From positions 2,048,805 to 2,112,804 of the forward strand of contig NZ_CP066171.1 in NCBI RefSeq assembly GCF_028867705.1: a DNA stretch of 64,000 nucleotides, read 5' to 3'. The DNA comes from Thermoleophilum album (GTDB lineage Bacteria > Actinomycetota > Thermoleophilia > Solirubrobacterales > Thermoleophilaceae). The position numbers and the translations under genes were made by a program. Each line of letters opens with the position of its first letter. The first letter of the stretch is position 1. The notes under the pieces are model-generated. The model was not told where the DNA came from, ran no database searches, and was given only the letters and a program-made list of their open reading frames with translations. Below are positions 1 through 50,785 of this stretch, piece by piece.

Positions 1-1010
1 GCGACGAACGAACGAGCGAACACGAACGCATGCACGGCGACGAGCGCACGCGCCGCGGCGGCGGCGAATCCCCGGCCGTTGCTGGTCCCGAACCGGTCTC
101 CTCGCCGGGGCGCGGCACGCCGACTCGCCCGCAACGGGCCGACAAAACGCGCTTCGTGAAAGAGCTCGAGGAGGCGCTCCTGGCCGGCGAAATCGATGTC
201 GCGGTGCACTCGGCCAAGGACGTGCCCGGCGAACTGCCCGACGGTCTCGTCCTAGCCGCTGCAGCGGGGCGCGCGAATCCAGCCGACGTGCTGGTGATGT
301 CGGCGGCAGTCGCGGCTAAGCGCTCGGCGGATGCGGCACTCAGCGCACTGCCAGCGGGCGCGCGTGTGGGCACGAGCTCGCGCCGCCGCACCGCCCAGCT
401 ACTCGCCGCCCGACCGGACATCGCGGTCGTGCCGCTGCGCGGCAACGTCGACACCCGCCTACGGCGTCTGCGCGAAAGCGAGCTCGACGCGGTCGTACTC
501 GCCGCCGCCGGCCTCGACCGCCTCGGTAGCGCGCTCGCGGAACTAGCGCCACGAGCCACGCACGACTCGCGGGAGCACCCCGTCGACCACATGCCCGCTG
601 ACACCCTCGCGATGCTGCGCCTCGATCCGCCCGCCTTCCTCCCGGCCCCCGGCCAGGGAACGCTCGTGTACGAGACGCGCCGCGACGACCATTCGACCCT
701 CGCCGTCTGCGCGGCCGCCAACGACAGCGCGAGTTGGCGCGAACTGTTGGCCGAACGGGCGCTGGTGCGTGCCCTCGAAGCCACCTGCGACACACCGCTC
801 GCCGCGCTCGCCCGCCACGAAGGAGACGAGCTCCAACTATCGGCATGGGCAGGATCGCCCGACGGGTCGACGTGGGTGCAAGACCGCGGCCGCGGCAGCC
901 GCGACCGTCCCGAGGAGCTCGGCGAGCTCGTCGCCGAGCGGATGCAAGCCGCCGGGGCGCTCGAGGTGATGGCCGGCATGCCCCCGAACGACGTGGCGCA
1001 GAGCCCTTGA
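1..1010 (+). CDS. hemC: Hydroxymethylbilane synthase (porphobilinogen deaminase), 5' end outside window
   Basis: HemC joins four porphobilinogen units into hydroxymethylbilane in the cytoplasm. The frame is open to the first base of the window, so the gene starts upstream. Seen motifs: DKTRFVKELEEAL, then VAVHSAKDVP with the catalytic Asp, GTSSRRRTAQLL, PLRGNVDTRLRRL, PAPGQGTL, and the cofactor-attachment Cys in EATCDTPLAALA. The window appears to open inside the usual TSGD motif, because base 3 onward reads Asp-Glu after a codon ending in GC. About 45 Arg/Gly/Pro-rich residues then precede DKTRFVKE, a lineage insertion that most HemC proteins lack. An ATG at 30 exists but would drop the essential N-terminal substrate-binding domain, so it is unlikely to be the start. 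A cobA-hemD fusion follows 28 bp downstream. Confidence 0.93.
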   Translation, partial: DERTSEHERMHGDERTRRGGGESPAVAGPEPVSSPGRGTPTRPQRADKTRFVKELEEALLAGEIDVAVHSAKDVPGELPDGLVLAAAAGRANPADVLVMSAAVAAKRSADAALSALPAGARVGTSSRRRTAQLLAARPDIAVVPLRGNVDTRLRRLRESELDAVVLAAAGLDRLGSALAELAPRATHDSREHPVDHMPADTLAMLRLDPPAFLPAPGQGTLVYETRRDDHSTLAVCAAANDSASWRELLAERALVRALEATCDTPLAALARHEGDELQLSAWAGSPDGSTWVQDRGRGSRDRPEELGELVAERMQAAGALEVMAGMPPNDVAQSP

Positions 1011-1038: not shown

Positions 1039-2559
1039 GTGACCAGCGAAGGTGCGAACGGAACGGGGGGTGTCGTCTACCTCGTCGGCTGCGGCCCGGG
1101 CGATCGTGGCCTTGTCACCGAGCGGGCCGTCGAGCTCGTCGCGAGCGCCGACGCGATCCTCTACGACCGCCTCGTGCCGCGCTCGCTGCTCGCCTTGGCT
1201 CCGCCGCAGTGCGAGCTGGTTTACGTCGGCAAGCTGCCGGGACGACCGACGCTGCCACAGGAGGAGATAAACGCCGAGCTCGTCGCGCGCGGCCGCGCCG
1301 GTCAACGGGTCGTGCGCCTGAAGGGCGGCGACCCGTTCGTGTTCGGTCGCGGCGGCGAGGAGGCCGAGGCGCTCGCCGCCGCCGGCGTCCCTTTCGAGGT
1401 CGTGCCGGGCGTCACCGCCGGCATTGCCGCGCCCGCTTACGCCGGCATCCCTGTGACGCACCGCGCCGAGGCGTCGGCCGTCGCCTTCGTCACGGCCCAC
1501 GAGGATCCCCGCAAAGGCGAGTCGGCGCTGGACTGGCGAGCGCTCGCACGCTTTCCCGGCACGCTCGTCTTCTACATGGGGGTCAGCCGCCTAGCCGCCG
1601 TGTCCGAACGTCTACGTGCGGAGGGGCGTAGCCCCGACGAGCCCTGCGCGGTGGTCGCCGACGGCACCCGCGCCACCCAGCGAACCGTGACCGGGACGCT
1701 GGCCACGATCGCCGAGCGGGTGGTGGCGGCGGGGCTGCAGCCACCGGCTGTGCTGGTCGTCGGAGCGGTGTGCGCCCTGCGCGACCGGCTAGCGTGGGCG
1801 GAGCGGCGACCGCTGCACGGCGCCGTGGTCGTGGTGACCCGCGCCCGCCCCCAACAGAGCGCGCTCGCACGGCGCCTGCGCGCGCTCGGCGCCGAGGTGG
1901 TGGAGGCGCCCGCGATCCGCATCCGCCCACTGCCGACGCCGCCCGAGCTCGCGACGATCGAGCGCTTCGGGCTCGTTTGCTTGACGAGCCCGAACGGCGC
2001 CCGCCTGCTCGTCGACGGTCTGCTCGCCCAGGGGCGCGACGCGCGTGCTCTCGCCCGCACGCAGATCGCGGCGATCGGCCCGGGCACGGCAGCGGCGCTG
2101 GCAGAGCGCGGGTTGCGCGCCGACATCGTGGCCGAGCGCTTCGTGGCCGAGGGGCTAGTCGAGGCGCTCTCGGACGTCGAGGTCGCAGACCGCGACGTTT
2201 TGATCGCCCGCGCCGCCGAGGCGCGCGACACCCTCGTCGAGGCGCTCGCCGCTCGCGGTGCGCGCGTGACCGTCGCGCCCCTCTACGAAACCGTTCACGA
2301 GCCGCTGCCCGACTACGCGCGCGACGACCTCGAGCGCGCCACCTACATCACTTTCACGGCTAGCTCGACGGTGCGCAGCTTTCTTGCCGGTGGCGGTACC
2401 GTTCCGCAGGGGGCGCGGGTGGTGTCGATCGGACCGATCACGACCGCGGCGCTGCGCGAAGCCGGTATAGCTGTCGATGTCGAGGCGTCGCGCCACGACA
2501 TCGACGGTCTTGTCGAAGCGCTCGTCGCCGACGCGCGAGCGAGGAGGGCGGTAGCGTGA
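1039..2559 (+). CDS. cobA-hemD: Uroporphyrinogen-III C-methyltransferase / uroporphyrinogen-III synthase fusion
   Basis: A 506-residue bifunctional enzyme. The N-terminal half (about 10-250) is a SUMT: VGCGPGD near residue 16, KGGDPFVFGRGGEE near 95 and VVPGVTAG near 122. It methylates uroporphyrinogen III twice with SAM to precorrin-2, the entry to sirohaem and cobalamin. The C-terminal half (about 258-500) is HemD, which cyclises hydroxymethylbilane; it shows LTSPNGARLL, the AIGPGTAAAL turn and FTASSTVRSF. The start is GTG at 1039. It follows hemC by 28 bp, and its TGA overlaps the next gene's GTG (GTGA). The fusion is known in several actinobacteria and Firmicutes. Coupling both activities suggests channelling towards precorrin-2. 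Confidence 0.95.
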   Translation: MTSEGANGTGGVVYLVGCGPGDRGLVTERAVELVASADAILYDRLVPRSLLALAPPQCELVYVGKLPGRPTLPQEEINAELVARGRAGQRVVRLKGGDPFVFGRGGEEAEALAAAGVPFEVVPGVTAGIAAPAYAGIPVTHRAEASAVAFVTAHEDPRKGESALDWRALARFPGTLVFYMGVSRLAAVSERLRAEGRSPDEPCAVVADGTRATQRTVTGTLATIAERVVAAGLQPPAVLVVGAVCALRDRLAWAERRPLHGAVVVVTRARPQQSALARRLRALGAEVVEAPAIRIRPLPTPPELATIERFGLVCLTSPNGARLLVDGLLAQGRDARALARTQIAAIGPGTAAALAERGLRADIVAERFVAEGLVEALSDVEVADRDVLIARAAEARDTLVEALAARGARVTVAPLYETVHEPLPDYARDDLERATYITFTASSTVRSFLAGGGTVPQGARVVSIGPITTAALREAGIAVDVEASRHDIDGLVEALVADARARRAVA

Positions 2560-3437
2560 CCGGCCACCAGTCGACCGCCACCGCGGATGCCCACCGCAGC
2601 GACGAGCAGCCGCCGCTCGTGACGCTGCTCACCGACTACGGACTCGGCGACGAGTTCGTCGGCGTTTTGCACGGCGTGATCGCTGGCATCTGCCCCCAGG
2701 CGCGAGTGATCGACATAACGCACGGGATCGAGCGCCACGACGTGCGCAAGGGCGCGCTCGTCCTGCGCGCCGCCTTGGCTTACTGTCCGCGCGGTGTTCA
2801 TGTCGCTGTGGTCGACCCCGGTGTCGGCACTGCTCGCCGCGGCGTCGCGGTGCGTGCCGCCGATGGCCGCATTCTCGTCGGCCCCGACAACGGGCTCTTG
2901 AGCCTGGCGCTCGAGAGCGCCGGCGGCGCCGTCGAGGCGGTCGAGATCACCCGCTCTCCGCTGCGCCTCGAGCCCGTGTCGGCCACGTTTCACGGCCGCG
3001 ACATCTTCGCTCCGGTCGCCGCTCATCTCGCAGCCGGCACGCCGTTGGCGGAGGCGGGCGAACCGTTCGACCCCGACACGCTCGTACGACTCGACCTCCC
3101 CGCACCGAAGCTGGACGGGGCGACCATCCACGCCCACGTTCTCACCTTCGACCGTTTCGGTAACGCGATCCTCTCGGCGTCGCACGAGCACGCCACCGCT
3201 GTCGGGCTGAAACTCGGCCGGCCGGTGCTCGTGCGCACGCCCCGTGGCGAGCGCGAAACGCTGTTCGTGCGCACGTTCGGCGACGTCGCCCCGGGCGAGC
3301 TGCTGCTCTACGAGGACTCTTGGCGGATGCTGGCGCTGGCTGTGAACCGCGGCGATGTGCGTAGCGTGCTCGGTATCGCGGTCGACGACAAAGTGACGAT
3401 CGCCCCGGTGCGCGAGGCGACGGGCGCGCAGCTGTGA
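2556..3437 (+). CDS. SAM hydroxide adenosyltransferase (DUF62 family)
   Basis: A 293-residue member of the DUF62 family, related to SAM-dependent fluorinase and chlorinase. The common bacterial and archaeal members hydrolyse SAM to adenosine and methionine. Seen: LLTDYGLGDEFVG near the N-terminus with the substrate-contacting Asp, VAVVDPGVGT, LVGPDNGLL, and FHGRDIFAPVAAHLA, followed by a C-terminal beta domain with DRFGNAIL. The length is typical. The GTG start overlaps the stop of cobA-hemD, so the two are co-translated. Sitting after a SAM-using methyltransferase is suggestive, but no direct pathway link is shown by the sequence. Halogenase activity is unlikely, because housekeeping genes surround it and no halometabolite genes are present. 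Confidence 0.88.
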   Translation: MTGHQSTATADAHRSDEQPPLVTLLTDYGLGDEFVGVLHGVIAGICPQARVIDITHGIERHDVRKGALVLRAALAYCPRGVHVAVVDPGVGTARRGVAVRAADGRILVGPDNGLLSLALESAGGAVEAVEITRSPLRLEPVSATFHGRDIFAPVAAHLAAGTPLAEAGEPFDPDTLVRLDLPAPKLDGATIHAHVLTFDRFGNAILSASHEHATAVGLKLGRPVLVRTPRGERETLFVRTFGDVAPGELLLYEDSWRMLALAVNRGDVRSVLGIAVDDKVTIAPVREATGAQL

Positions 3438-42461: not shown

Positions 42462-43181
42462 CTACTCCTTCTTCGACTTGAGCGAGGCTACGAACTTGAC
42501 GAGCTCGTTGAACTCTTCCGGCTTGCGATCGCGCAGGCTCTTGAACGATGGCATCGGTGCCGTCGGGTTGACGAGCGTGCGGGCGATCGCGTTGGGACCG
42601 AGACGGTCGCCGATGTGGGTCAGGTCCGGACCGAGGGTGTTGCCGTTCTCGCCCACCTTGTGACAGCCGAGGCAGCCCGACGCAGCCATCACCTCGGCGC
42701 CGCGCTTGTACTGGGGCGCCACCTTCATGTCGATCTCGGTCGGCGAGCCGGCGAGCGCACCGAGCACCGTGAGGTACGCCATCGCCGCGATCGTCACGAC
42801 CCCCGCCGTGGTGGCGATCGGGCGGCGGAGCGGGTGGCGCTCGGGGTTGCGGTCGATGAACGGAAGCAAAAACAGCAGGATCATGCAGATCGTCGGGATG
42901 CCCACGGTCGCGACGAAAACGAGCTCCGGGGGCTTAACGATCCGAAGAAGCTCGAACAGGAAGAAGAAGTACCACTCGGGTCGCGGCACGTAGGTGGTGG
43001 TAGTGGCGTCGGCCTTGGGCCCGAGCTCGGCGCCGAGCATCAGCGACATGAAGATGATCACGGCGAGCACGATGCACGCCATGACTCCGTCCTTCGCCAC
43101 CGCATAGGGGAAGAACGGTTTGCCCTGCTCCTTGAGGAGGGCGTATTCCTTGAGGTACTGCTCGCGCTCGCGCCGGTTCAC
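42462..43181 (-). CDS. qcrC: Menaquinol:cytochrome c reductase cytochrome b/c subunit
   Basis: A 239-residue fusion of the C-terminal cytochrome b part (subunit-IV-like) and cytochrome c. The first part has four hydrophobic segments and YVPRPEWYFFFLFELLRIVK with the PEWYF motif of the quinol-oxidation site. The second part carries a single haem-c site CLGCH, with Met ligand in APMPSF. The GTG at 43181 is used. The layout matches Bacillus QcrC, not the di-haem QcrC of mycobacteria and streptomycetes. It acts in the membrane with haem c on the outer side. Confidence 0.93.
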   Translation of the reverse strand: MNRREREQYLKEYALLKEQGKPFFPYAVAKDGVMACIVLAVIIFMSLMLGAELGPKADATTTTYVPRPEWYFFFLFELLRIVKPPELVFVATVGIPTICMILLFLLPFIDRNPERHPLRRPIATTAGVVTIAAMAYLTVLGALAGSPTEIDMKVAPQYKRGAEVMAASGCLGCHKVGENGNTLGPDLTHIGDRLGPNAIARTLVNPTAPMPSFKSLRDRKPEEFNELVKFVASLKSKKE

Positions 43182-43200
43182 TTCCGTCGAACTCCGGTGT

Positions 43201-44013
43201 TCACAGCTCGCGCTTGGCGAGTTCCTTCTTTTTCGCCTTGACCCAGGGCGGAGCCGTCGTGCCGAGCTTCGCGACAAGGTACAGATGGACACCGATCAGC
43301 GCGGCGATAAGGCCCGGGATCAGCATCATGTGGATCGCGTAGAAGCGGCTGAGCGTGCTCGCGTTGAACTCCGCACCGGCACGCAGGAAGTCTGCAAGGT
43401 AGGGCCCGAGGATCGGCCCGGAAGCGTTGATGTTGACGCCGACGACAGTGGCCCAGTAAGAGCGCTGGTCGAAGGGCAGAAGGTATCCGGTGAAGCCCAT
43501 CGCCATGGTCAAGATCAAGAGCACGACGCCCACGATCCAGTTCAGCTCGCGCGGGTACTTGTAGGCACCGAAGAAGAAGGTGCGGCCCATGTGCAGGAAG
43601 ATCAGCACGATCATCACCGTCGCACCCCAGCGGTGCATGCCGCGCACGAACTCGCCGAGGAAAACCTCGTTGGTGATGCGCGACGCCGACTCGTACGCCC
43701 GCGAGGGATCGGGCTCGTAGTACATCGCAAGGAAGACGCCCGTCACGGCCTGCGACAGGAAGGCGAACATCGTCGCGGAGCCGAGCGTGTAGAACCAGTT
43801 GGTGCCCTTCGGGACCTTGCGGAAGAGGAACCCTCGCAGGAAGGGGCTAAGACCTACGCGCTCCTCCACCCAAGAGGTGACGCCCACGCCTGCCTTGCGC
43901 GCCTGGTCGGGGATGGTCGGGCGCGCCGGGCGACCCTGATCGTCGACCAGCTCGTCGGGGCGCGGCGGCGCCGGCCGGGCGAACTTGGGCAGTGGCGGTG
44001 TCGGAGCTTTCAT
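43201..44013 (-). CDS. qcrB: Cytochrome b6-like subunit of the bc complex
   Basis: A 270-residue cytochrome b N-terminal half with four membrane helices. The haem-b ligands lie in helix B (GMHRWGATVMIVLIFLHMGR) and helix D (FYAIHMMLIPGLIAALIGVH). GYLLPFDQRSYWATVVG matches the Qo-site loop. The ATG at 44013 overlaps the Rieske gene stop (ATGA). A 45-residue Pro-rich N-terminal extension precedes the first helix. The split into short b6 plus b/c fusion is the Bacillus/cyanobacterial arrangement. Confidence 0.94.
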   Translation of the reverse strand: MKAPTPPLPKFARPAPPRPDELVDDQGRPARPTIPDQARKAGVGVTSWVEERVGLSPFLRGFLFRKVPKGTNWFYTLGSATMFAFLSQAVTGVFLAMYYEPDPSRAYESASRITNEVFLGEFVRGMHRWGATVMIVLIFLHMGRTFFFGAYKYPRELNWIVGVVLLILTMAMGFTGYLLPFDQRSYWATVVGVNINASGPILGPYLADFLRAGAEFNASTLSRFYAIHMMLIPGLIAALIGVHLYLVAKLGTTAPPWVKAKKKELAKREL

Positions 44014-44675
44014 ATCGTGGGTCTCGACGGGTAGAGGTACTGCCAGAGCCCGTCCAGGTGGTTGGACGGGTCGCGCGGCGAGAAACGCTCGAGCTTCGAG
44101 TTCAGCGAGAAGCGGTCGCCGACCTCGACGCGTCCGTTGCGCACGCGCGTGTAGAAGCGGTCGAGCGGTCGCACCGGCGGCCCACCGAACACTTTGCCCT
44201 GGAAGTCGTAGACGCCGCCGTGGCAGGGGCAGATGAAGCGCTGCGACGCCGAGACGTAACGGACGGGGCAACCGAGGTGCATGCAGCGGTTAGAGATCGC
44301 GACATAGGGCTGGTCGGAGTTCGCCTCGCCGTCGATGCGCGGGTTGTAGCGGCGAACGTAGATCGTGGTGCGGCCAGCCTCGCCGATCTCCGGAACGATG
44401 TTGATGACGCGCGGGACGTAGTCGCTGTCGTTGAAATCTTCCTCGGGACCGATGTCCTGCCAGCGACTCGGCTCGGTGCGCTCGAAGATCGGCCCCAGAG
44501 CGAACCCGAGCGTGGGCAGAGCGAAGGCAGCGGTCGCGATACCACCGGCGGCGACAGCGGTACCCGTCATGAAAGCGCGCCGGGTGACCGTCTCGCCTTC
44601 GAAAGCCCCGGGGATCCCGCGGTCCTTGGTGTAGCGGGACTTGCGCTGGGAAGTCTTGCTGGTGCGGTCGGACAC
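44010..44675 (-). CDS. qcrA: Rieske iron-sulfur subunit of the bc complex
   Basis: A 221-residue Rieske protein. A twin-arginine-type motif TRRAFM (about 31-36) precedes one membrane helix (about 38-62). The 2Fe-2S domain has CMHLGC and CPCHGGVYDFQG with two Cys and two His ligands. A loop of about 55 residues lies between the anchor and the cluster. The start is GTG at 44675. It is the first gene of the reverse-strand qcrA-qcrB-qcrC operon. The single transmembrane helix contrasts with the three of mycobacterial QcrA. Confidence 0.95.
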   Translation of the reverse strand: MSDRTSKTSQRKSRYTKDRGIPGAFEGETVTRRAFMTGTAVAAGGIATAAFALPTLGFALGPIFERTEPSRWQDIGPEEDFNDSDYVPRVINIVPEIGEAGRTTIYVRRYNPRIDGEANSDQPYVAISNRCMHLGCPVRYVSASQRFICPCHGGVYDFQGKVFGGPPVRPLDRFYTRVRNGRVEVGDRFSLNSKLERFSPRDPSNHLDGLWQYLYPSRPTI

Positions 44676-44812: not shown

Positions 44813-45331
44813 TCAGCGTGGTCCGCCGCGGGCCGACAGTAGCTGCGTAGCGGTAGCAGCGAAGAGAGCGTGCAGGTCGCACTCGCCACGACCAACGGCT
44901 CGACCGTGTGCCGCTTCAGCGATGCACGCCGCGAGCCTGTCGATCGCCTCAAGGTCGCGATTTTCCGCCAGCTCGCTCAAGGCCTGCGCGTACAGCGCAT
45001 CGCCAGCAAGCAACGCGAGGTCCGCGTTGAGCGAGCGAGCGAAAACGCGCGAAATCCCCGCGTGTACGCGATGCCCTTCGTACACCGCCTCGACAGCGCG
45101 CGGACGCAGCGGAACAGGTCGGTCGTCGCTGGCACCCGCGCGCTGTGCCGCCCCACAGATGCAGTCGCCACCGCCAGCGACCATGCTGCGTTCCTTGTCG
45201 CCACCTTCGCCCGAAACGGACGGGCGGGTGGACTGTTCCTGGTGCTCGGGCTCGAGCGGCCGCGCACCGAGATCCACCAGCTCGCGCGGCAGGCTCTGTA
45301 CCACTTCCGCTAGAGCACCACAGAGCGTCAC
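44813..45331 (-). CDS. Unknown protein with a polyprenyl-synthase-like helix motif
   Basis: A 172-residue protein. The first 75 residues are unstructured-looking with a CICG pair (57 and 60). The rest is helical, with VFARSLNADLALLAGDALYAQALSEL and LEAIDRLAACIAEAAHG. The LLAGDALYA stretch recalls the helix after the first Asp motif of isoprenyl diphosphate synthases, but no DDxxD motif is present, so catalysis is unlikely. The GTG start at 45331 overlaps the hemL stop (GTGA), so it is co-translated with hemL. The function is not known. Confidence 0.6.
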   Translation of the reverse strand: MTLCGALAEVVQSLPRELVDLGARPLEPEHQEQSTRPSVSGEGGDKERSMVAGGGDCICGAAQRAGASDDRPVPLRPRAVEAVYEGHRVHAGISRVFARSLNADLALLAGDALYAQALSELAENRDLEAIDRLAACIAEAAHGRAVGRGECDLHALFAATATQLLSARGGPR

Positions 45332-46641
45332 CGACTAGCCCCCGAGTAGACGTTATCGTGCACCGCTTGGAGCGCCGTGCGCGCCGCAGCGAGCGTGCGC
45401 TCGACGTGTGACTGCTCGTGGGCGAGCGAGGGAAACCACGCCTCGAACCGCGACGGTGGCACGAAGATTCCTTGGTCGAGCAGCGAGCGAGCGAAGACGG
45501 CGTACGCCTCGGCGCTGGTGGCGCTGACGTCGGCAAAGTCGTGCACCGGACCGGCGGTGAAGAAGGGACAGACGAGACCCGGCGCCGCGGTCACCGTCAA
45601 AGGCACACCCACCTCTTCGCCGAGTGCGCGCAGACCGTCGGCGAGCGACGACGAGATGCGCTCGAGGTGTGCGCGTGCGGCGCTGTCGCGCGCCAACTCG
45701 ACAGCTATCCGCCCGGCGGCGGTGGCCAGCGGATTGCCCGACAGCGTGCCCGCTTGGTAGACGTCGCCGCTCGGAGCGAGCGCTTCCATCGCTCGCCGCG
45801 GCCCGCCGAACGCGGCCAACGGCAGGCCGCCCCCGATCACCTTCCCGAGCACGGTGAGATCGGGCGTCACCCCCTCGCGCTCCTGTGCCCCTCCCGGGGC
45901 GACGCGGAAGCCGGTTATCACCTCGTCGAAGACGAGCAGCGCCCCCACCTCGTCGGCGCGCTCGCGCAGATAAGCGAGGAAGCCCTCGCTCGGGGGCACG
46001 AAACCCATGTTGGCCGGATACGGCTCGCAGAAAATCGCCGCGAAATCGCCGCTTGCGAGCGCTTCGTCGACCGCGGTGCGATCGTTCCAGGCGACCACCA
46101 CCGTGTCGGCAACGGCGCCCTCGGGCACGCCCGGGCTTGCCGGAATGCCGTGTGTCGCAAGGCCCGACCCGGCTGCAACCAGGAAGGGGTCGGCGTGGCC
46201 ATGGTAGGCGCCGGCGAACTTGAGCACCCGCGTCTTGCCGGTCACAGCGCGCGCCAAGCGCAGCGCGCTCATCGCCGCCTCGGTGCCCGAGGAGACGAAG
46301 CGCACCATCTCGACCGACGGTACGGAGTCGACGACAAGCCGGGCGAGCTCGAGCTCTCCCCGGGTAGGCGCGCCGTAGCTGGTGCCGCTTGCCGCCCGCG
46401 CCGTCACGGCCGCGACGATGTCGGGGTGGGCGTGACCGGCCAGCAGCGCACCCCACGACATCACCCAGTCGACGTAACGGTTGCCGTCGACGTCGACGAG
46501 CTCGGCACCCTCGCCGCGCGCGACGACGAACGGCTCGCGACCGATCTGCCCCATCGCCCGTACCGGGGAACTCACGCCTCCCGGCATGTACTGGCGGGAC
46601 TCGGCGAACAGTTCGTGCGAGCGTCGGGCGCGGCGACTCAT
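45328..46641 (-). CDS. hemL: Glutamate-1-semialdehyde 2,1-aminomutase
   Basis: A 437-residue PLP enzyme that makes 5-aminolevulinate from glutamate-1-semialdehyde (C5 pathway). Seen: RQYMPGGVSSPVRAM, VDVDGNRYVDWVMSWG, VSSGTEAAMSALRLARA, KFAGAYHGHADPFL, LLVFDEVITGFRVA, and the PLP lysine in LTVLGKVIGGGLP, then AGTLSGNPLA. The ATG at 46641 overlaps the stop of the siroheme-decarboxylase-like gene (ATGA). This shows the organism uses the plant-type C5 route to tetrapyrroles. Confidence 0.96.
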   Translation of the reverse strand: MSRRARRSHELFAESRQYMPGGVSSPVRAMGQIGREPFVVARGEGAELVDVDGNRYVDWVMSWGALLAGHAHPDIVAAVTARAASGTSYGAPTRGELELARLVVDSVPSVEMVRFVSSGTEAAMSALRLARAVTGKTRVLKFAGAYHGHADPFLVAAGSGLATHGIPASPGVPEGAVADTVVVAWNDRTAVDEALASGDFAAIFCEPYPANMGFVPPSEGFLAYLRERADEVGALLVFDEVITGFRVAPGGAQEREGVTPDLTVLGKVIGGGLPLAAFGGPRRAMEALAPSGDVYQAGTLSGNPLATAAGRIAVELARDSAARAHLERISSSLADGLRALGEEVGVPLTVTAAPGLVCPFFTAGPVHDFADVSATSAEAYAVFARSLLDQGIFVPPSRFEAWFPSLAHEQSHVERTLAAARTALQAVHDNVYSGASR

Positions 46642-47717
46642 CCGCCGTAGCGCTCCTCCCAACGGCGATAGTCGTCGACGAAGTAGAGAAGGCGGACCTT
46701 CTTGAACTCGGTCGACGAGTAGAGGGTCGCCCGCTCTTCGATCCCCGTTTCGCGAGCGACAGCCGCAAGGATCGCGTCGCACTCCTCCTTCGAGCGCCCG
46801 TGCGCCATCGTGAAGAGCGAGTAGGGCCAGTCCGGATAGGTAGGCCGCTGGTAGCAGTGCGATATGCCACGGAAGGCGGCCATCTTCGGGCCGACCTCAA
46901 GCACCCGCTCCTCGGGAACCTTCCAGACACCCATCCCGTTCGCCGAAAACCCCGCGCGGCGGTGGTAGAGAATCGCCGCTACTCGGCGCAGCGCGCCGCG
47001 CTCGCGCAGCGAGGCGAGCGACGCGAGCACCTCGTCGGTGCCGACACCGAGCCGGGCGGCGGCGCGGTCGAAGGGGCGCGGGCAAGCTTCCATCGGACCC
47101 TGTGTCGCGCGGATCACCGCGATGTCCCAGTCGCTGAGCGGCACTGGCTCGGGATCGCGTGGCTCGACGGCCTCGACCGGGGCGGCCAGACCGTCGGTGG
47201 TCGCCTCCATCTCGAGGTCCATCCGGATTTTGAAGAGGCGCAGCGTCGGCAGCATCCGCATCGAGCGGGCACCGCTGAGGCGCGCGAGCACGTCGAGCGT
47301 CCCCTCCAGACCGAGCGCAGAGTCGGGCTCGACGGCGATCGTGAACCAGAGGTTGAACTCGTGGTCGCGGAGATAGTTGTGCGAGACCCCGGGATGCTCG
47401 TTGATCACCCGTGCGGCTCGGTGCGGATGCTCGGGATCCACCTTGGCGGCGACGAGCATCGAGCGGTACCCGAGCGCTCGCGTGTCGAAGATCGGCGTGA
47501 TCTCGCGGATGATGCGCTTGCGCAAAAGCCAGGCCGTGCGGTCGATGACATCCTCCTCGCTACGCCCGAGCGCGGCCGCGAGCGGCGCGAACGGTCGCTC
47601 CTCAAGGGGGAAACTGCCCTGCAGCAGGTTGAGCAGCCGCCGGTCTTCGGCACTGAGCGGGACTGCCGCGCCGTATTTGCGCGAGCGCACCTTCGGTCTA
47701 GCTCTCAGCCGAGCCAC
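46638..47717 (-). CDS. ahbAB: Fused siroheme decarboxylase-like protein (AhbA-AhbB)
   Basis: A 359-residue tandem of two Lrp/AsnC-fold units. Unit 1 (about 20-170) has ERPFAPLAAALG, REITPIFDTRALGYRSMLVA and HNYLRDHEFNLWFTIA. Unit 2 (about 190-350) has RRVAAILYHRRAGFSANGMGVW and ISHCYQRPTYPDWPYSLFTM. Both match AhbA and AhbB, which decarboxylate sirohaem to didecarboxysirohaem in siroheme-dependent haem synthesis; NirDL in haem d1 synthesis is the alternative. A transcription-factor role is less likely because both ligand-domain motifs are enzyme-type. The GTG at 47717 overlaps hemB by 13 bp; a GTG at 47690 would not. Co-linear with hemB and hemL. Confidence 0.85.
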   Translation of the reverse strand: MARLRARPKVRSRKYGAAVPLSAEDRRLLNLLQGSFPLEERPFAPLAAALGRSEEDVIDRTAWLLRKRIIREITPIFDTRALGYRSMLVAAKVDPEHPHRAARVINEHPGVSHNYLRDHEFNLWFTIAVEPDSALGLEGTLDVLARLSGARSMRMLPTLRLFKIRMDLEMEATTDGLAAPVEAVEPRDPEPVPLSDWDIAVIRATQGPMEACPRPFDRAAARLGVGTDEVLASLASLRERGALRRVAAILYHRRAGFSANGMGVWKVPEERVLEVGPKMAAFRGISHCYQRPTYPDWPYSLFTMAHGRSKEECDAILAAVARETGIEERATLYSSTEFKKVRLLYFVDDYRRWEERYGG

Positions 47718-48676
47718 TCGGCGACCTCCTGGGCGAAGTAGGTGACGACGATGTCGGCGCCGGCACGCCTGATTGCAAGCAACGCCTCGAGCACCGCCGC
47801 ACGCTCGTCGAGGGCGCCCGCCTGTGCCGCGTATTTCAGCATCGCGTACTCGCCGCTGACGTTGTAGGCGGCGACGGGAACCTCGACGCTCGCGCGTACG
47901 CGCGCGATTACGTCAAGGTAAGGGAGGGCCGGTTTCACCATCACGACGTCGGCCCCCTCCTCGATATCCAAAGCCACTTCTCGCAGCGCTTCGCGCGCGT
48001 TCGCGGGATCGAGCTGGTAGCCGCGACGATCGCCGAACGCCGGTGCCGAGTCGGCAGCAGCGCGGAAGGGTCCGTAGAAGGCGGACGCGAACTTGGCGGC
48101 GTAAGAGACGATCGCGCGCTCGGCGAACCCTTCCTCGTCGAGCACGCCGCGTATCGCAGCGACGCGACCGTCCATCATGTCGCTCGGGGCTACGGCGTCC
48201 GCACCGGCGCGGGCGTGCGACACCGCGGTGCGCGCCAAAAGTTCGAGCGTCGCATCGTTGTCGACGCTGCCGTCAGCGCGGAGCACTCCGCAGTGGCCGT
48301 GCGTGGTGTACTGACAGAGGCAAACGTCGGTGACGACGACGAGCTCGGGTAGCTCGCTTTTCAAAGCGCGCACCGCGAGCTGAACGACTCCCTCGTCGTC
48401 CCACGCCGCTGAACCCTGGTCGTCTTTCCAAGGGGGAATACCGAAGAGAAGCACGGCGCGCACGCCGAGCTCGTGCGCGCGCCGCGCCGCTGCCACAGCT
48501 TCACCGATCGGCAAGCGTTCGACCCCTGGCATGCCGTCCACGCTTTCGCGCGCGCTGCCGGTGTGAACGAACAACGGCAGCACGAGGTGGCCAGGTGCGA
48601 GATCCGTCTCGCGGACCAGGTCTCGTAGCCCCGCGCTCCGACGAAGCCGGCGCAGGCGCGTCGCCGGAAAGCCCAT
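47705..48676 (-). CDS. hemB: Delta-aminolevulinic acid dehydratase (porphobilinogen synthase)
   Basis: A 323-residue enzyme that condenses two 5-aminolevulinate to porphobilinogen. Seen: LVLPLFVHTG, VLLFGIPPWKDDQGSAAWD, the metal-site segment DVCLCQYTTHGHCG with three Cys (zinc type), the Schiff-base lysine in SYAAKFASAFYGPFR, and MVKPALPYLDVIARVR with the second Lys. The ATG at 48676 is used. It overlaps or abuts the siroheme-decarboxylase-like gene downstream, forming hemB-ahbAB-hemL-(unknown). Confidence 0.96.
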   Translation of the reverse strand: MGFPATRLRRLRRSAGLRDLVRETDLAPGHLVLPLFVHTGSARESVDGMPGVERLPIGEAVAAARRAHELGVRAVLLFGIPPWKDDQGSAAWDDEGVVQLAVRALKSELPELVVVTDVCLCQYTTHGHCGVLRADGSVDNDATLELLARTAVSHARAGADAVAPSDMMDGRVAAIRGVLDEEGFAERAIVSYAAKFASAFYGPFRAAADSAPAFGDRRGYQLDPANAREALREVALDIEEGADVVMVKPALPYLDVIARVRASVEVPVAAYNVSGEYAMLKYAAQAGALDERAAVLEALLAIRRAGADIVVTYFAQEVAEWLG

Positions 48677-48689
48677 CGCGAGAAGCAGT

Positions 48690-50027
48690 TTACGGACCGG
48701 CGGCGCCCGGCTGTGCCAGGGCGAAGCGCGCGAGCGCTCCATAGGCGAGGGCGAGCGCGGCAAGATGAAGCAGCGCGCCCTCCGCCAGCGCCCCGCGCAG
48801 GCCTTGCTCGAGCGCATCGAGCGCGGGTGCGAAGGGGAAGAGCGCAGCGAGAACGCGCGTCAGCTCCCACAGGGCACGATCGACTGCGCCGGACGGGACA
48901 AGCGCGAGCAGCGCGAGCGGGAGGCCAGCTAGTACGGCCAGAAGCGACGAGGCGCGAACGTCGCGGGCGACCGCCCCGATCACGAGCCCCACGGCACCGA
49001 ACGCCGCCGCGGCGACAACCAGCCCAAGCCCCCACCAGGGAACCCCGGCGGGCACACCCGGCACGAAAAGCGCGACGATCAAGACCAACAGCGTCCCGCC
49101 CACAAGTCCGGCGAGCGCCGAGAGGAGCGCTTTGGCCGCGAGTATCCGTTCGATCGCGAGGTGCCGGCGCAAGCGCAGCAGCACGCCCTCCTCGCGCTCG
49201 AGCGCTAGGCCACCAGCCGCGAGCAGCATCGCCACGAACATCACGGCTATCGCCACCGCTACGGCGACGGCGAACTCGTCGAGGGAGCGCTGTCTACCCG
49301 CGACCACCCGTTCGCGCAGGGCGATCGGCTCGCTGAGAGCGCGCAAAAGACCGCCCGACGCCCCGAGGTTGCGACGGGCGAGCTCGGCAAAACCGGCGAC
49401 ACGCTCGATACGGGCGCGCGTCTCGCCGCTCGCATTGCGGGCAGCTAGGCGCAGTTCGCGCTCCGAACCGCGCAAGCCAAGGATCTCGATCGTTCGTCCG
49501 AAGATCGTCACTTTGCCGCCGTCGAGCACCAGGCCGAGATCGCGGATCGCGGCGTCGACGAGCGCCCGACCGATCGCCGCGTTGGCATCGCGCAGGCGCG
49601 CCTTGATCGTGTCGCGCACGAACCGTGCCTTGACGGGATCGTCGGCGTTGTAGAACACGGTTACGGAAACCGGTTGGAGACGCGATTGCAAGCGGTCGAC
49701 GACGTCAGGCGGTACGACGATCGCGGCGAGAACCTCGCCCTCGCGCACAAGGCGTGCAGCGTCCTGCTCGTCCTGCGCCGGCACGACGTCGATCGACTGG
49801 CGCAGGGCGCGCGTCGCGGTGGGAATATCGAGCTCGCGGCTGCCGATCGCGATCTTCTGCTGCTCGGGCGGCAGCGGATCGACGATCGCGATCCGCGGTT
49901 TGTCCGGGCCCCGCGAGAGCGCGAAGCCGATCAAGAGCGCGAGCAGCACCGGGTAGAAGACGAGCAGCGCGACAAGAAGCTTCGAGCGCCCCAGAATCAG
50001 CACGTCCTTGCGCACCAGCGCCCGCAT
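48690..50027 (-). CDS. ABC-2 type transporter permease
   Basis: A 445-residue ABC-2 permease. Helix 1 (about 15-36, LLVALLVFYPVLLALLIGFAL) is followed by a large extracytoplasmic domain (about 37-255, with VVPAQDEQDAARLVREGEVLAAIVVP). Five hydrophobic helices follow (about 260-440, starting VAVAVAIAVMFVAMLLAA). The topology matches YhgE/DrrB-like exporters with a solute-sized ectodomain. The ATPase gene precedes it by 14 bp. The exported substrate cannot be read from the sequence. The ATG at 50027 is the first good start after the ATPase stop. Confidence 0.85.
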   Translation of the reverse strand: MRALVRKDVLILGRSKLLVALLVFYPVLLALLIGFALSRGPDKPRIAIVDPLPPEQQKIAIGSRELDIPTATRALRQSIDVVPAQDEQDAARLVREGEVLAAIVVPPDVVDRLQSRLQPVSVTVFYNADDPVKARFVRDTIKARLRDANAAIGRALVDAAIRDLGLVLDGGKVTIFGRTIEILGLRGSERELRLAARNASGETRARIERVAGFAELARRNLGASGGLLRALSEPIALRERVVAGRQRSLDEFAVAVAVAIAVMFVAMLLAAGGLALEREEGVLLRLRRHLAIERILAAKALLSALAGLVGGTLLVLIVALFVPGVPAGVPWWGLGLVVAAAAFGAVGLVIGAVARDVRASSLLAVLAGLPLALLALVPSGAVDRALWELTRVLAALFPFAPALDALEQGLRGALAEGALLHLAALALAYGALARFALAQPGAAGP

Positions 50028-50041
50028 CGTGGCCGGCAGTG

Positions 50042-50785
50042 TCAGTGTCCTTTCGTGCGCAAGAAGCGCACGAACGCCTCTTCGAAGTCGAGCCCTTGCG
50101 CTCCCACAGCCGCTGCTAGCGCGTCCGGCGAACCGGCGAAGACGAGCTCGCCGTCGGCGAGGACCAGCACCCGATCGGCGTAGCGCTCCGCTTCCTGCAC
50201 GAGATGGGTGGTGTAGAGGATCGCCGTTCCGGCTGCCGCCAAGCGGGTGAGGATCGACCAGAAGTTCTCGCGTTGGCGCGGGTCGAGCGCCGTCGTCGGC
50301 TCGTCGAGCAAGAGCAGCTCGGGATCGCCAAGCAACCCGACCGCCAGGTTGGTGCGCTGGCGCAAGCCGCCGGAAAGCTCCTCGACGCGGTCGTGCGCGC
50401 GCTCGACGAGGTCGCAAGCCGACAGCGCCGCGTCGACCCGTCGCGCGACGTCGTCGAGGCGCTCGAGCCGCGCGAACGTCTCGAGGTTCTCGCGCACCGT
50501 CAGACGCGCGTACAGGCCGGGTCGCTGCGGCACCCAACCGATCCGCTCGACATGCCGCTCGACAATGCCGCCGTCAGCGTCGACGATCCCCGCAAGGATC
50601 GACAGCAATGTCGTCTTGCCGGCACCGTTAGGTCCGATGACAGCGACCAGTTCGCCCCGCCCGATCGTCAGCCCGACATCGGCAAGCGCCCGGCGAGTAC
50701 CGAAGCGCTTCTCGAGGGCGCGAGCCTCGAGGACGGTCACCGCCGGCGACGAGACGGTGGGGGGCGAGGCGGCGGGTTGCTGCAT
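50042..50785 (-). CDS. ABC transporter ATP-binding protein
   Basis: A 247-residue ATPase. Walker A is GPNGAGKTTLL, the Q loop WVPQRPGLY, signature LSGGLRQRTNLA, Walker B LLLLDEPTTALD, and H-loop TTHLVQEAE. The sequence is of the drug/polysaccharide-exporter ABC-2 class (CcmA-like). The ATG at 50785 follows a short gap to ymdB on the other strand. It pairs with the permease gene downstream to form a complete exporter. Confidence 0.94.
   Translation of the reverse strand: MQQPAASPPTVSSPAVTVLEARALEKRFGTRRALADVGLTIGRGELVAVIGPNGAGKTTLLSILAGIVDADGGIVERHVERIGWVPQRPGLYARLTVRENLETFARLERLDDVARRVDAALSACDLVERAHDRVEELSGGLRQRTNLAVGLLGDPELLLLDEPTTALDPRQRENFWSILTRLAAAGTAILYTTHLVQEAERYADRVLVLADGELVFAGSPDALAAAVGAQGLDFEEAFVRFLRTKGH

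What the first reader, a model, noticed from the sequence alone, without database searches (positions are those of the whole stretch)
46638..48676. Fused siroheme-decarboxylase-like gene inside a hemB-hemL operon, with a cobA-hemD fusion in the same window
The 359-residue tandem carries the motif sets of both AhbA and AhbB. It overlaps hemB (13 bp) and hemL (4 bp), so it is tied to tetrapyrrole synthesis. hemC and a cobA-hemD fusion are also present, giving precorrin-2. Known: AhbA/B act in the siroheme-dependent haem route of archaea and sulfate reducers, and NirDL-type relatives act in haem d1 synthesis. Inference: this actinobacterium-like organism may make haem, or a haem-like cofactor, from sirohaem, or use the fused protein for a new step. 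Actinobacteria are normally assigned to the coproporphyrin route, so the coexistence deserves a check.
Basis: partly seen in the sequence, partly recalled or inferred. Interest (0 to 1): 0.75.

Follow-up and report, generated by a model that had tools for sequence, protein, structure and literature searches.

The report
Heme from siroheme, one enzyme missing
This actinobacterium carries a fused gene predicted to start making heme from siroheme and a relative of the enzyme that likely finishes it, but no recognisable gene for the step between and neither of two key genes of the usual route, so it and much of its order likely use an enzyme not yet known.

Summary
Confirmed: window 46638-47717(-) is one 359-aa AhbA+AhbB fusion (siroheme decarboxylase), overlapping hemB by 13 bp and hemL by 4 bp; both NCBIfam equivalog cut-offs are passed. 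The fusion itself and the CobA-HemD fusion are ordinary. The surprise is the rest of the genome (one 2.11-Mb contig, genus Thermoleophilum by inference): no match for HemE or HemH, no AhbC/AhbD/NirJ-type radical-SAM protein, but one divergent chlorite-dismutase/ChdC-family protein. Among 61 genomes of the order, 47 have AhbB and ChdC family without AhbC, and none has a convincing HemE. Among 246 genomes of the phylum, AhbB and ferrochelatase nearly exclude each other; 38 of 56 AhbB genomes lack AhbC, 36 of those 38 have ChdC, none has HemH. Best reading: a hybrid, likely aerobic route, siroheme > (AhbAB) didecarboxysiroheme > (unidentified, likely non-radical-SAM enzyme) coproheme > (ChdC) heme b. 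A 2010 survey reported the same gap in three archaea (PMC3004389). I did not find the missing enzyme; gene neighbourhoods, the radical-SAM set and the ChdC tree gave no candidate. A published E. coli assay and SAM-methyl labelling would test it.

The parts
46638..47717 (-). ahbAB: fused siroheme decarboxylase, AhbA half (residues 24-169) + AhbB half (200-344), 359 aa, GTG start
47705..48676 (-). hemB, porphobilinogen synthase, overlaps ahbAB by 13 bp
   Evidence: ALAD E 4.8e-143; PRK09283 485.8 bits over cut-off
45328..46641 (-). hemL, glutamate-1-semialdehyde aminomutase, overlaps ahbAB by 4 bp
   Evidence: NF000818 554 bits over cut-off
44813..45331 (-). 172-aa ORF overlapping hemL by 4 bp; isoprenyl-diphosphate-synthase-like predicted fold, likely a menaquinone side-chain synthase subunit; considered and rejected as the missing enzyme
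30..1010 (+). hemC (the true start lies upstream of the window)
   Evidence: Pfam PF01379 E 5.8e-52; L205 ORF 18670-19815
1039..2559 (+). cobA-hemD fusion (uroporphyrinogen III methyltransferase / synthase), predicted to give precorrin-2
42462..44675 (-). Rieske protein, b6-type cytochrome b and cytochrome b/c subunit (CxxCH at residue 207 of the ORF 42462-43292): the cytochrome subunits would need heme

Best explanation
The fused gene is predicted to encode a siroheme decarboxylase that would start a hybrid, likely aerobic heme route: siroheme to 12,18-didecarboxysiroheme by AhbAB, then to coproheme by an unidentified enzyme that is likely not a radical-SAM protein, then likely to heme b by a ChdC-family protein. 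Shown here: the AhbAB fusion and its operon; CobA-HemD and a CysG-N-type precorrin-2 dehydrogenase/chelatase gene; one ChdC-family gene; no match for HemE or HemH and no AhbC/AhbD/NirJ-type protein in a one-contig genome; the same gene set through much of the order and in other families of the phylum. Inferred: every catalytic step, that iron is inserted at sirohydrochlorin, and that the middle step (loss of the two acetate groups at C2 and C7, done by the radical-SAM enzyme AhbC elsewhere) is carried out by a separate oxygen- or peroxide-linked enzyme. The link to oxygen rests on the co-occurrence of ChdC with the absence of AhbC and on chemistry, not on an assay.
For: AhbA and AhbB cut-offs passed. 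Own genome: ChdC family E 6.9e-57; 8 Radical_SAM matches in 7 proteins, named MiaB, MoaA, BioB, LipA, RlmN, CofGH and Rv2578c-like; URO-D none; ferrochelatase none; best AhbC-model match 49.5 bits, which is the MoaA gene. Siroheme supply: CobA-HemD and CysG_N TIGR01470 176.7 bits with NAD_binding_7, Sirohm_synth_M and CysG_dimeriser. Order: AhbB over cut-off in 55 of 61, ChdC family in 54 of 61, near-full-length AhbC-type match (449-473 bits) in 4 of 61, URO-D at E<=0.001 in 3 of 61, all partial; 47 of 61 have AhbB and ChdC without AhbC (my count from those rows). Phylum sample of 246: AhbB in 56, HemH in 129, both in 3 (Fisher p 3e-17; genomes are related, so p is only indicative); AhbB without AhbC 38, of which ChdC 36 and HemH 0; AhbB with AhbC 18, of which ChdC 6 and HemH 3. 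Single-contig genomes show it too: G000, G033, G071, G076, G101, G137 have AhbB and ChdC, no AhbC and no HemH. Heme is needed: b- and c-type cytochrome genes lie close to the operon. Same gap elsewhere: Sulfolobus acidocaldarius, Haloquadratum walsbyi and Nitrosopumilus maritimus are listed with ahb-nir genes but without nirJ1 and nirJ2 (PMC3004389, passages), which a later paper equates with AhbD and AhbC (PMC3942049, passages).
Against: The enzyme for the middle step was not found. ChdC here is divergent: 121 bits against a cut-off of 235 for NF042928 HemQ_actino, so its activity on coproheme is inferred. AhbC presence is my own threshold: the curated cut-off of 650 bits is reached by 0 of 61 order genomes and 9 of 246 phylum genomes, and generic radical-SAM matches occur in nearly all (52 of 61, 242 of 246); I counted 336 bits or more as AhbC. 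Four of the 61 order genomes (G034, G039, G040, G044) have AhbC beside ChdC, and a few AhbB genomes lack ChdC (4 of 55 in the order; 2 of the 38 without AhbC in the phylum sample, G228 and G271), some perhaps from incomplete bins. The own genome is rated 95.66% complete. G033 has a partial URO-D match over the Pfam cut-off (26.3 bits, positions 117-214 of 346). AhbD was judged only through the Radical_SAM family, not with its own model. CgoX and HemF were not searched, HemH was searched in 7 of the 61 order genomes only, and HemE was not searched in the phylum sample. I found no experiment on any of these actinobacterial proteins.
Confidence: 0.7

Rival explanations
1. The ChdC-family protein does both jobs: with peroxide it removes the two acetates of didecarboxysiroheme and then decarboxylates coproheme, so no further enzyme is missing.
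For: ChdC is the only late heme enzyme family that I found besides AhbAB in these genomes; the substrate carries iron and could itself form the ferryl species (chemical reasoning); own ChdC is far below the HemQ_actino cut-off.
Against: In a tree of 71 ChdC-family proteins those from AhbAB genomes do not form one group (14 changes of label needed) and lie in several places among those of ferrochelatase genomes; G051 and G059 of the same order carry the type of the ferrochelatase genomes. A special second activity would have to be common to the whole family.
Confidence: 0.12
2. A radical-SAM enzyme that is not of the AhbC family, such as the Rv2578c-like protein, does the AhbC step.
For: Of the seven radical-SAM proteins, the Rv2578c-like one alone has no assigned role in its family name, and it misses its own cut-off (379 of 430 bits).
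Against: From recall, Rv2578c-type proteins are widespread in actinobacteria that use the coproporphyrin route; its second-best model is the PA0069 family, not AhbC.
Confidence: 0.07
3. The organism uses the coproporphyrin route with unrecognisable HemE and HemH, and AhbAB makes another cofactor or acts as a heme-sensing regulator.
For: ChdC is the last enzyme of that route; many AhbAB relatives are named Lrp regulators by their source.
Against: Needs two unknown enzymes instead of one; AhbAB sits inside hemB-hemL; AhbB and ferrochelatase nearly exclude each other in 246 genomes; no NirJ-type protein, needed for heme d1.
Confidence: 0.06
4. These bacteria do not finish heme but take it up.
For: The late pathway is incomplete by gene content.
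Against: ChdC is kept in 54 of 61 order genomes; Thermoleophilum album is described as obligate for n-alkane substrates (PMC6741124, passages and a cited title), which would supply no heme.
Confidence: 0.05

Closest known systems
Siroheme-dependent (Ahb) heme pathway of Methanosarcina barkeri and Desulfovibrio (AhbAB, AhbC, AhbD; PMC3942049, passages)
   Same: CobA, CysG-N-type enzyme and AhbAB present; siroheme to didecarboxysiroheme is the predicted first step
   Different: no AhbC or AhbD found here; a ChdC-family protein instead of AhbD; the AhbC step has no known enzyme
Haloferax volcanii heme synthesis (AhbAB, AhbC, AhbD plus PitA/ChdC; PMC5746218, passages)
   Same: AhbAB combined with a ChdC-family protein, which in Haloferax matters for aerobic growth
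   Different: Haloferax keeps AhbC and AhbD; here neither was found; PitA carries an extra ABM-like domain
Sulfolobus acidocaldarius, Haloquadratum walsbyi, Nitrosopumilus maritimus (PMC3004389, passages)
   Same: listed with AhbA/B-type genes but without the genes for AhbC and AhbD
   Different: archaea; that paper found it questionable whether they make heme, and the words chlorite dismutase do not occur in it
Coproporphyrin-dependent route of Gram-positive bacteria (HemE, CgoX, CpfC/HemH, ChdC)
   Same: ends with a ChdC-family protein
   Different: no HemE or HemH match here
NirDL siroheme decarboxylase of heme d1 synthesis (PDB 4ch7/4czc)
   Same: fused two-domain protein, aligned over residues 25-353
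   Different: sits in a hemB-hemL operon; no NirJ-type protein in the genome, so heme d1 is unlikely

Membership tests
AhbAB siroheme decarboxylase | AhbA and AhbB profile scores above the curated cut-offs | tested here: met
   239.5 bits (140) and 235.5 bits (125)
AhbAB siroheme decarboxylase | Two essential histidines (title of Haufschildt 2014, seen in a reference list) | tested here: inconclusive
   5 of 6 histidines of 4ch7 in the aligned stretch are kept (by eye); I did not see which two are essential
AhbAB siroheme decarboxylase | Converts siroheme to 12,18-didecarboxysiroheme | not testable with these tools
   needs an assay
Lrp/AsnC regulator | Best match to Lrp-type profiles | tested here: not met
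   LrpA 28.2 bits, cut-off 250
Complete Ahb heme pathway | AhbC (TIGR04546-type) present | tested here: not met
   own best 49.5 bits, the MoaA gene
Complete Ahb heme pathway | AhbD or other SPASM radical-SAM heme synthase present | tested here: not met
   through the Radical_SAM family only: 7 proteins, none named AhbD
Coproporphyrin-dependent pathway | HemE | tested here: not met
   3 weak partial matches in 61 order genomes
Coproporphyrin-dependent pathway | Ferrochelatase CpfC/HemH | tested here: not met
Coproporphyrin-dependent pathway | CgoX (HemY) | not tested
   no search left
ChdC (coproheme decarboxylase) | Chlorite-dismutase family domain | tested here: met
   PF06778 192.3 bits; nearest PDB 9mhq coproheme decarboxylase E 5.7e-27
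ChdC (coproheme decarboxylase) | NCBIfam HemQ equivalog cut-off | tested here: not met
   121.3 bits, cut-off 235; so 'ChdC family', activity inferred

The most novel reading that the evidence does not exclude
Aerobic actinobacteria of several families (here Solirubrobacterales, with a Rubrobacter-like and other families), and perhaps aerobic archaea, run a fourth heme route in which an undiscovered, oxygen-linked, non-radical-SAM enzyme removes the two acetate arms of didecarboxysiroheme, so that AhbAB feeds ChdC.
Probability: 0.6. Interest if true: 0.85.

Novelty: new variant of a known kind. Interest (0 to 1): 0.7.

Why it matters
Passages read here assign the siroheme route to archaea and some sulfate reducers and describe the coproporphyrin route as used almost exclusively by Gram-positive bacteria (PMC10991733). 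If the reading holds, many deep-branching actinobacteria make heme from siroheme with one enzyme still unknown. That would give O2-dependent and O2-independent partners for each late step (ChdC/AhbD, unknown/AhbC), and could also explain archaea in which heme synthesis was called questionable in 2010.

Tried and rejected

Missing enzyme beside ChdC: 26 then 46 neighbourhoods gave no common unknown gene. FprA-like reductase, IscA/HesB, glutaredoxin and BolA-like genes recur in the order (the ChdC anchor was not recognised in 6 of 26 and 8 of 46 loci; I placed 7 of those 8 by coordinates, while L289 gave no gene calls). Missing enzyme beside AhbAB elsewhere: in at least 9 of 35 phylum loci AhbC or AhbD lies nearby, all nine in genomes without a ChdC match; the others show no shared candidate (no AhbAB anchor in 5 of 35). 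Gene calls in these scripts come from a simple codon-composition rule and miss genes.

ChdC specialised for the extra step: not supported by the tree. It holds 71 rows; 184 genomes had a ChdC-family match (54 in the order, 137 in the phylum sample, 7 in both). One row, L064/G055, was dropped because its frame was unclear; G031 was labelled AhbAB although its AhbB match is only a contig-edge fragment. My first ChdC alignment took wrong frames for five comparison loci and was replaced.

Literature: no paper on this gap in actinobacteria was found in the held library (searches). Most subscription papers and bioRxiv are not held. All papers cited were seen as passages or listings, none whole.
Full report
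What is there. The window holds an overlapping set of genes on the minus strand: hemB (47705-48676), a 359-aa fused ahbA-ahbB (46638-47717), hemL (45328-46641) and a 172-aa ORF (44813-45331), with overlaps of 13, 4 and 4 bp. The fused protein passes the curated cut-offs of both siroheme decarboxylase subunits and is far from Lrp regulators. It aligns over nearly its whole length with the NirD-like protein 4ch7. hemC and a cobA-hemD fusion lie at the other end of the window. Upstream of the window in the genome are a CysG-N-type siroheme synthase gene, ccmA/B/C-like genes and hemA.

Where it is. The window is the last 64 kb of a single contig of 2,112,804 bases, rated 95.66% complete. The collection scan gave 80 loci, mostly labelled Solirubrobacterales, Thermoleophilaceae, Solirubrobacteraceae or just actinobacteria, with a few odd labels such as Bifidobacterium or Chlamydiae that look like misnamed bins. 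The nearest ChdC relative is named Thermoleophilum album, and its longest contig (1,261,070) has the length of the contig of G001, the genome marked 'same genus'. So the organism is very likely a Thermoleophilum relative (inference).

The gap. In this genome URO-D (HemE) and ferrochelatase (HemH) have no match. The 8 Radical_SAM matches belong to seven proteins named MiaB, MoaA, BioB, LipA, RlmN, CofGH and an Rv2578c-like protein, so I take AhbC, AhbD, NirJ and HemN as absent. One chlorite-dismutase-family gene is present. Its nearest solved relative is a coproheme decarboxylase, but it is well under the curated HemQ cut-off. The window also codes for cytochromes that would need heme.

The order. 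In the same set of 61 genomes (own plus 60 relatives), AhbB is over its cut-off in 55, ChdC family in 54, an AhbC-type match of 449-473 bits in 4 (the curated cut-off of 650 is reached by none; 52 have some radical-SAM match to the model), and URO-D in 3 as short or weak matches, one of them over the Pfam cut-off. From those rows I count 47 of 61 with AhbB and ChdC and without AhbC. In three of the four AhbC genomes (G034, G039, G044) a second radical-SAM match lies within 0.2 kb, in G040 about 11 kb away; it may be AhbD.

The phylum. In a sample of 246 genomes, AhbB (56 genomes) and ferrochelatase (129) overlap in only 3, all of which also have AhbC. I took AhbC as present at 336 bits or more, where a gap in scores lies (next 242 bits); the curated cut-off is reached in 9 of 246. 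Of 56 AhbB genomes, 18 have AhbC and 38 do not. ChdC is in 6 of the 18 and in 36 of the 38; HemH is in 3 of the 18 and 0 of the 38. One of the families concerned (f20) contains a genome of 3,225,748 bases, a size I recall for Rubrobacter xylanophilus DSM 9941 (recall, not a call). In nine loci of genomes without ChdC, ahbC or ahbD lies beside the early hem genes and ahbAB.

How it likely works. CobA-HemD and the CysG-N-type enzyme would give siroheme; AhbAB would remove the two acetate carboxyls on rings C and D. In known pathways AhbC then removes the acetate arms at C2 and C7 to give Fe-coproporphyrin III (PMC3942049, passages). Here that enzyme is missing, and ChdC would take over from coproheme. 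The simplest account needs one unknown enzyme; the coproporphyrin alternative needs two. Because ChdC is a peroxide-dependent family (model name 'hydrogen peroxide-dependent heme synthase') and co-occurs with the absence of AhbC, I infer that the unknown step is also oxygen-linked. Haloferax deletion results fit a split of this kind: loss of PitA/ChdC hurts aerobic but not anaerobic growth (PMC5746218, passages).

Known or new. Fused AhbAB is the usual form in many archaea, and CobA-HemD fusions are common in Actinobacteria (PMC11237513, passages). AhbA/B-type genes without those for AhbC/AhbD were noted in three archaea in 2010, with the comment that heme synthesis there is questionable (PMC3004389, passages). 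I found no paper that describes the actinobacterial case; the ten searches are listed under Tried and rejected.

Limits. Many genomes are metagenome bins, so single absences mean little; the argument rests on the pattern and on single-contig genomes. CgoX and HemF were not searched, AhbD was not searched with its own model, and HemH was searched in 7 of the 61 order genomes only (own plus six in the phylum sample; no match in any). No enzyme activity is shown. The missing enzyme is not identified.

Side lead. Nine genomes of the phylum sample have ChdC but neither HemH nor AhbB over cut-off. Five of them (G145, G176, G197, G218, G238) carry another tandem AsnC-type protein (ORFs of 378-446 aa). 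Three proteins of this kind (G145, G176 and G186) were scanned: AhbA 39-55 bits, AhbB 63-74 bits, below both cut-offs. Relatives are named 'Lrp/AsnC' or hypothetical in Egibacter, Euzebya and some Planctomycetota. It may be a second, divergent siroheme-decarboxylase-like family. The AhbB search of the 61 order genomes shows no such double weak match in its rows, so it is not the general missing enzyme.

Noticed in passing
window 44813-45331 (-): 172-aa ORF between hemL and the Rieske gene, found by profile in 93 of the 136 sequences searched, including 7 loci of another Thermoleophilia family (f5); isoprenyl-synthase-like predicted fold, likely a non-catalytic prenyl synthase subunit.
   Followed up: yes
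window 48690-50785 (-): ABC permease and ATPase just upstream of hemB; the permease cluster is in 57 and the ATPase cluster in 35 of 100 order loci, and similar genes precede hemB in f5 loci; a tetrapyrrole or heme exporter is possible.
   Followed up: partly
window 2556-3437 (+): SAM hydroxide adenosyltransferase gene overlapping cobA-hemD by 4 bp; a SAM-consuming enzyme tied to a SAM-using tetrapyrrole enzyme.
   Followed up: no
L331-L336 (genomes G218, G176, G197, G238, G145, G186): A widespread tandem AsnC_trans_reg2 protein family (about 378 aa) with weak AhbA and AhbB similarity, in five of nine genomes with ChdC but neither ferrochelatase nor AhbB over cut-off (and in G186, which has AhbAB and AhbC); a possible second siroheme-decarboxylase-like family of unknown role.
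   Followed up: partly
G002, G003, G017, G057: A second, weak chlorite-dismutase-family match of about 190 aa besides ChdC (E 1e-10 to 7e-9).
   Followed up: no
L025 and ChdC loci of the order: An FprA-like NADPH-ferredoxin reductase (19 of 26 loci), IscA/HesB (14), monothiol glutaredoxin (13) and BolA-like (7) genes recur near ChdC (names by eye), linking Fe-S and heme genes.
   Followed up: no
control genome Deinobacterium chartae: Rings for AhbB (whether over the cut-off is not shown) and ChdC family but not for HemE or HemH, so it may share the same gap; only yes/no is given for controls.
   Followed up: no
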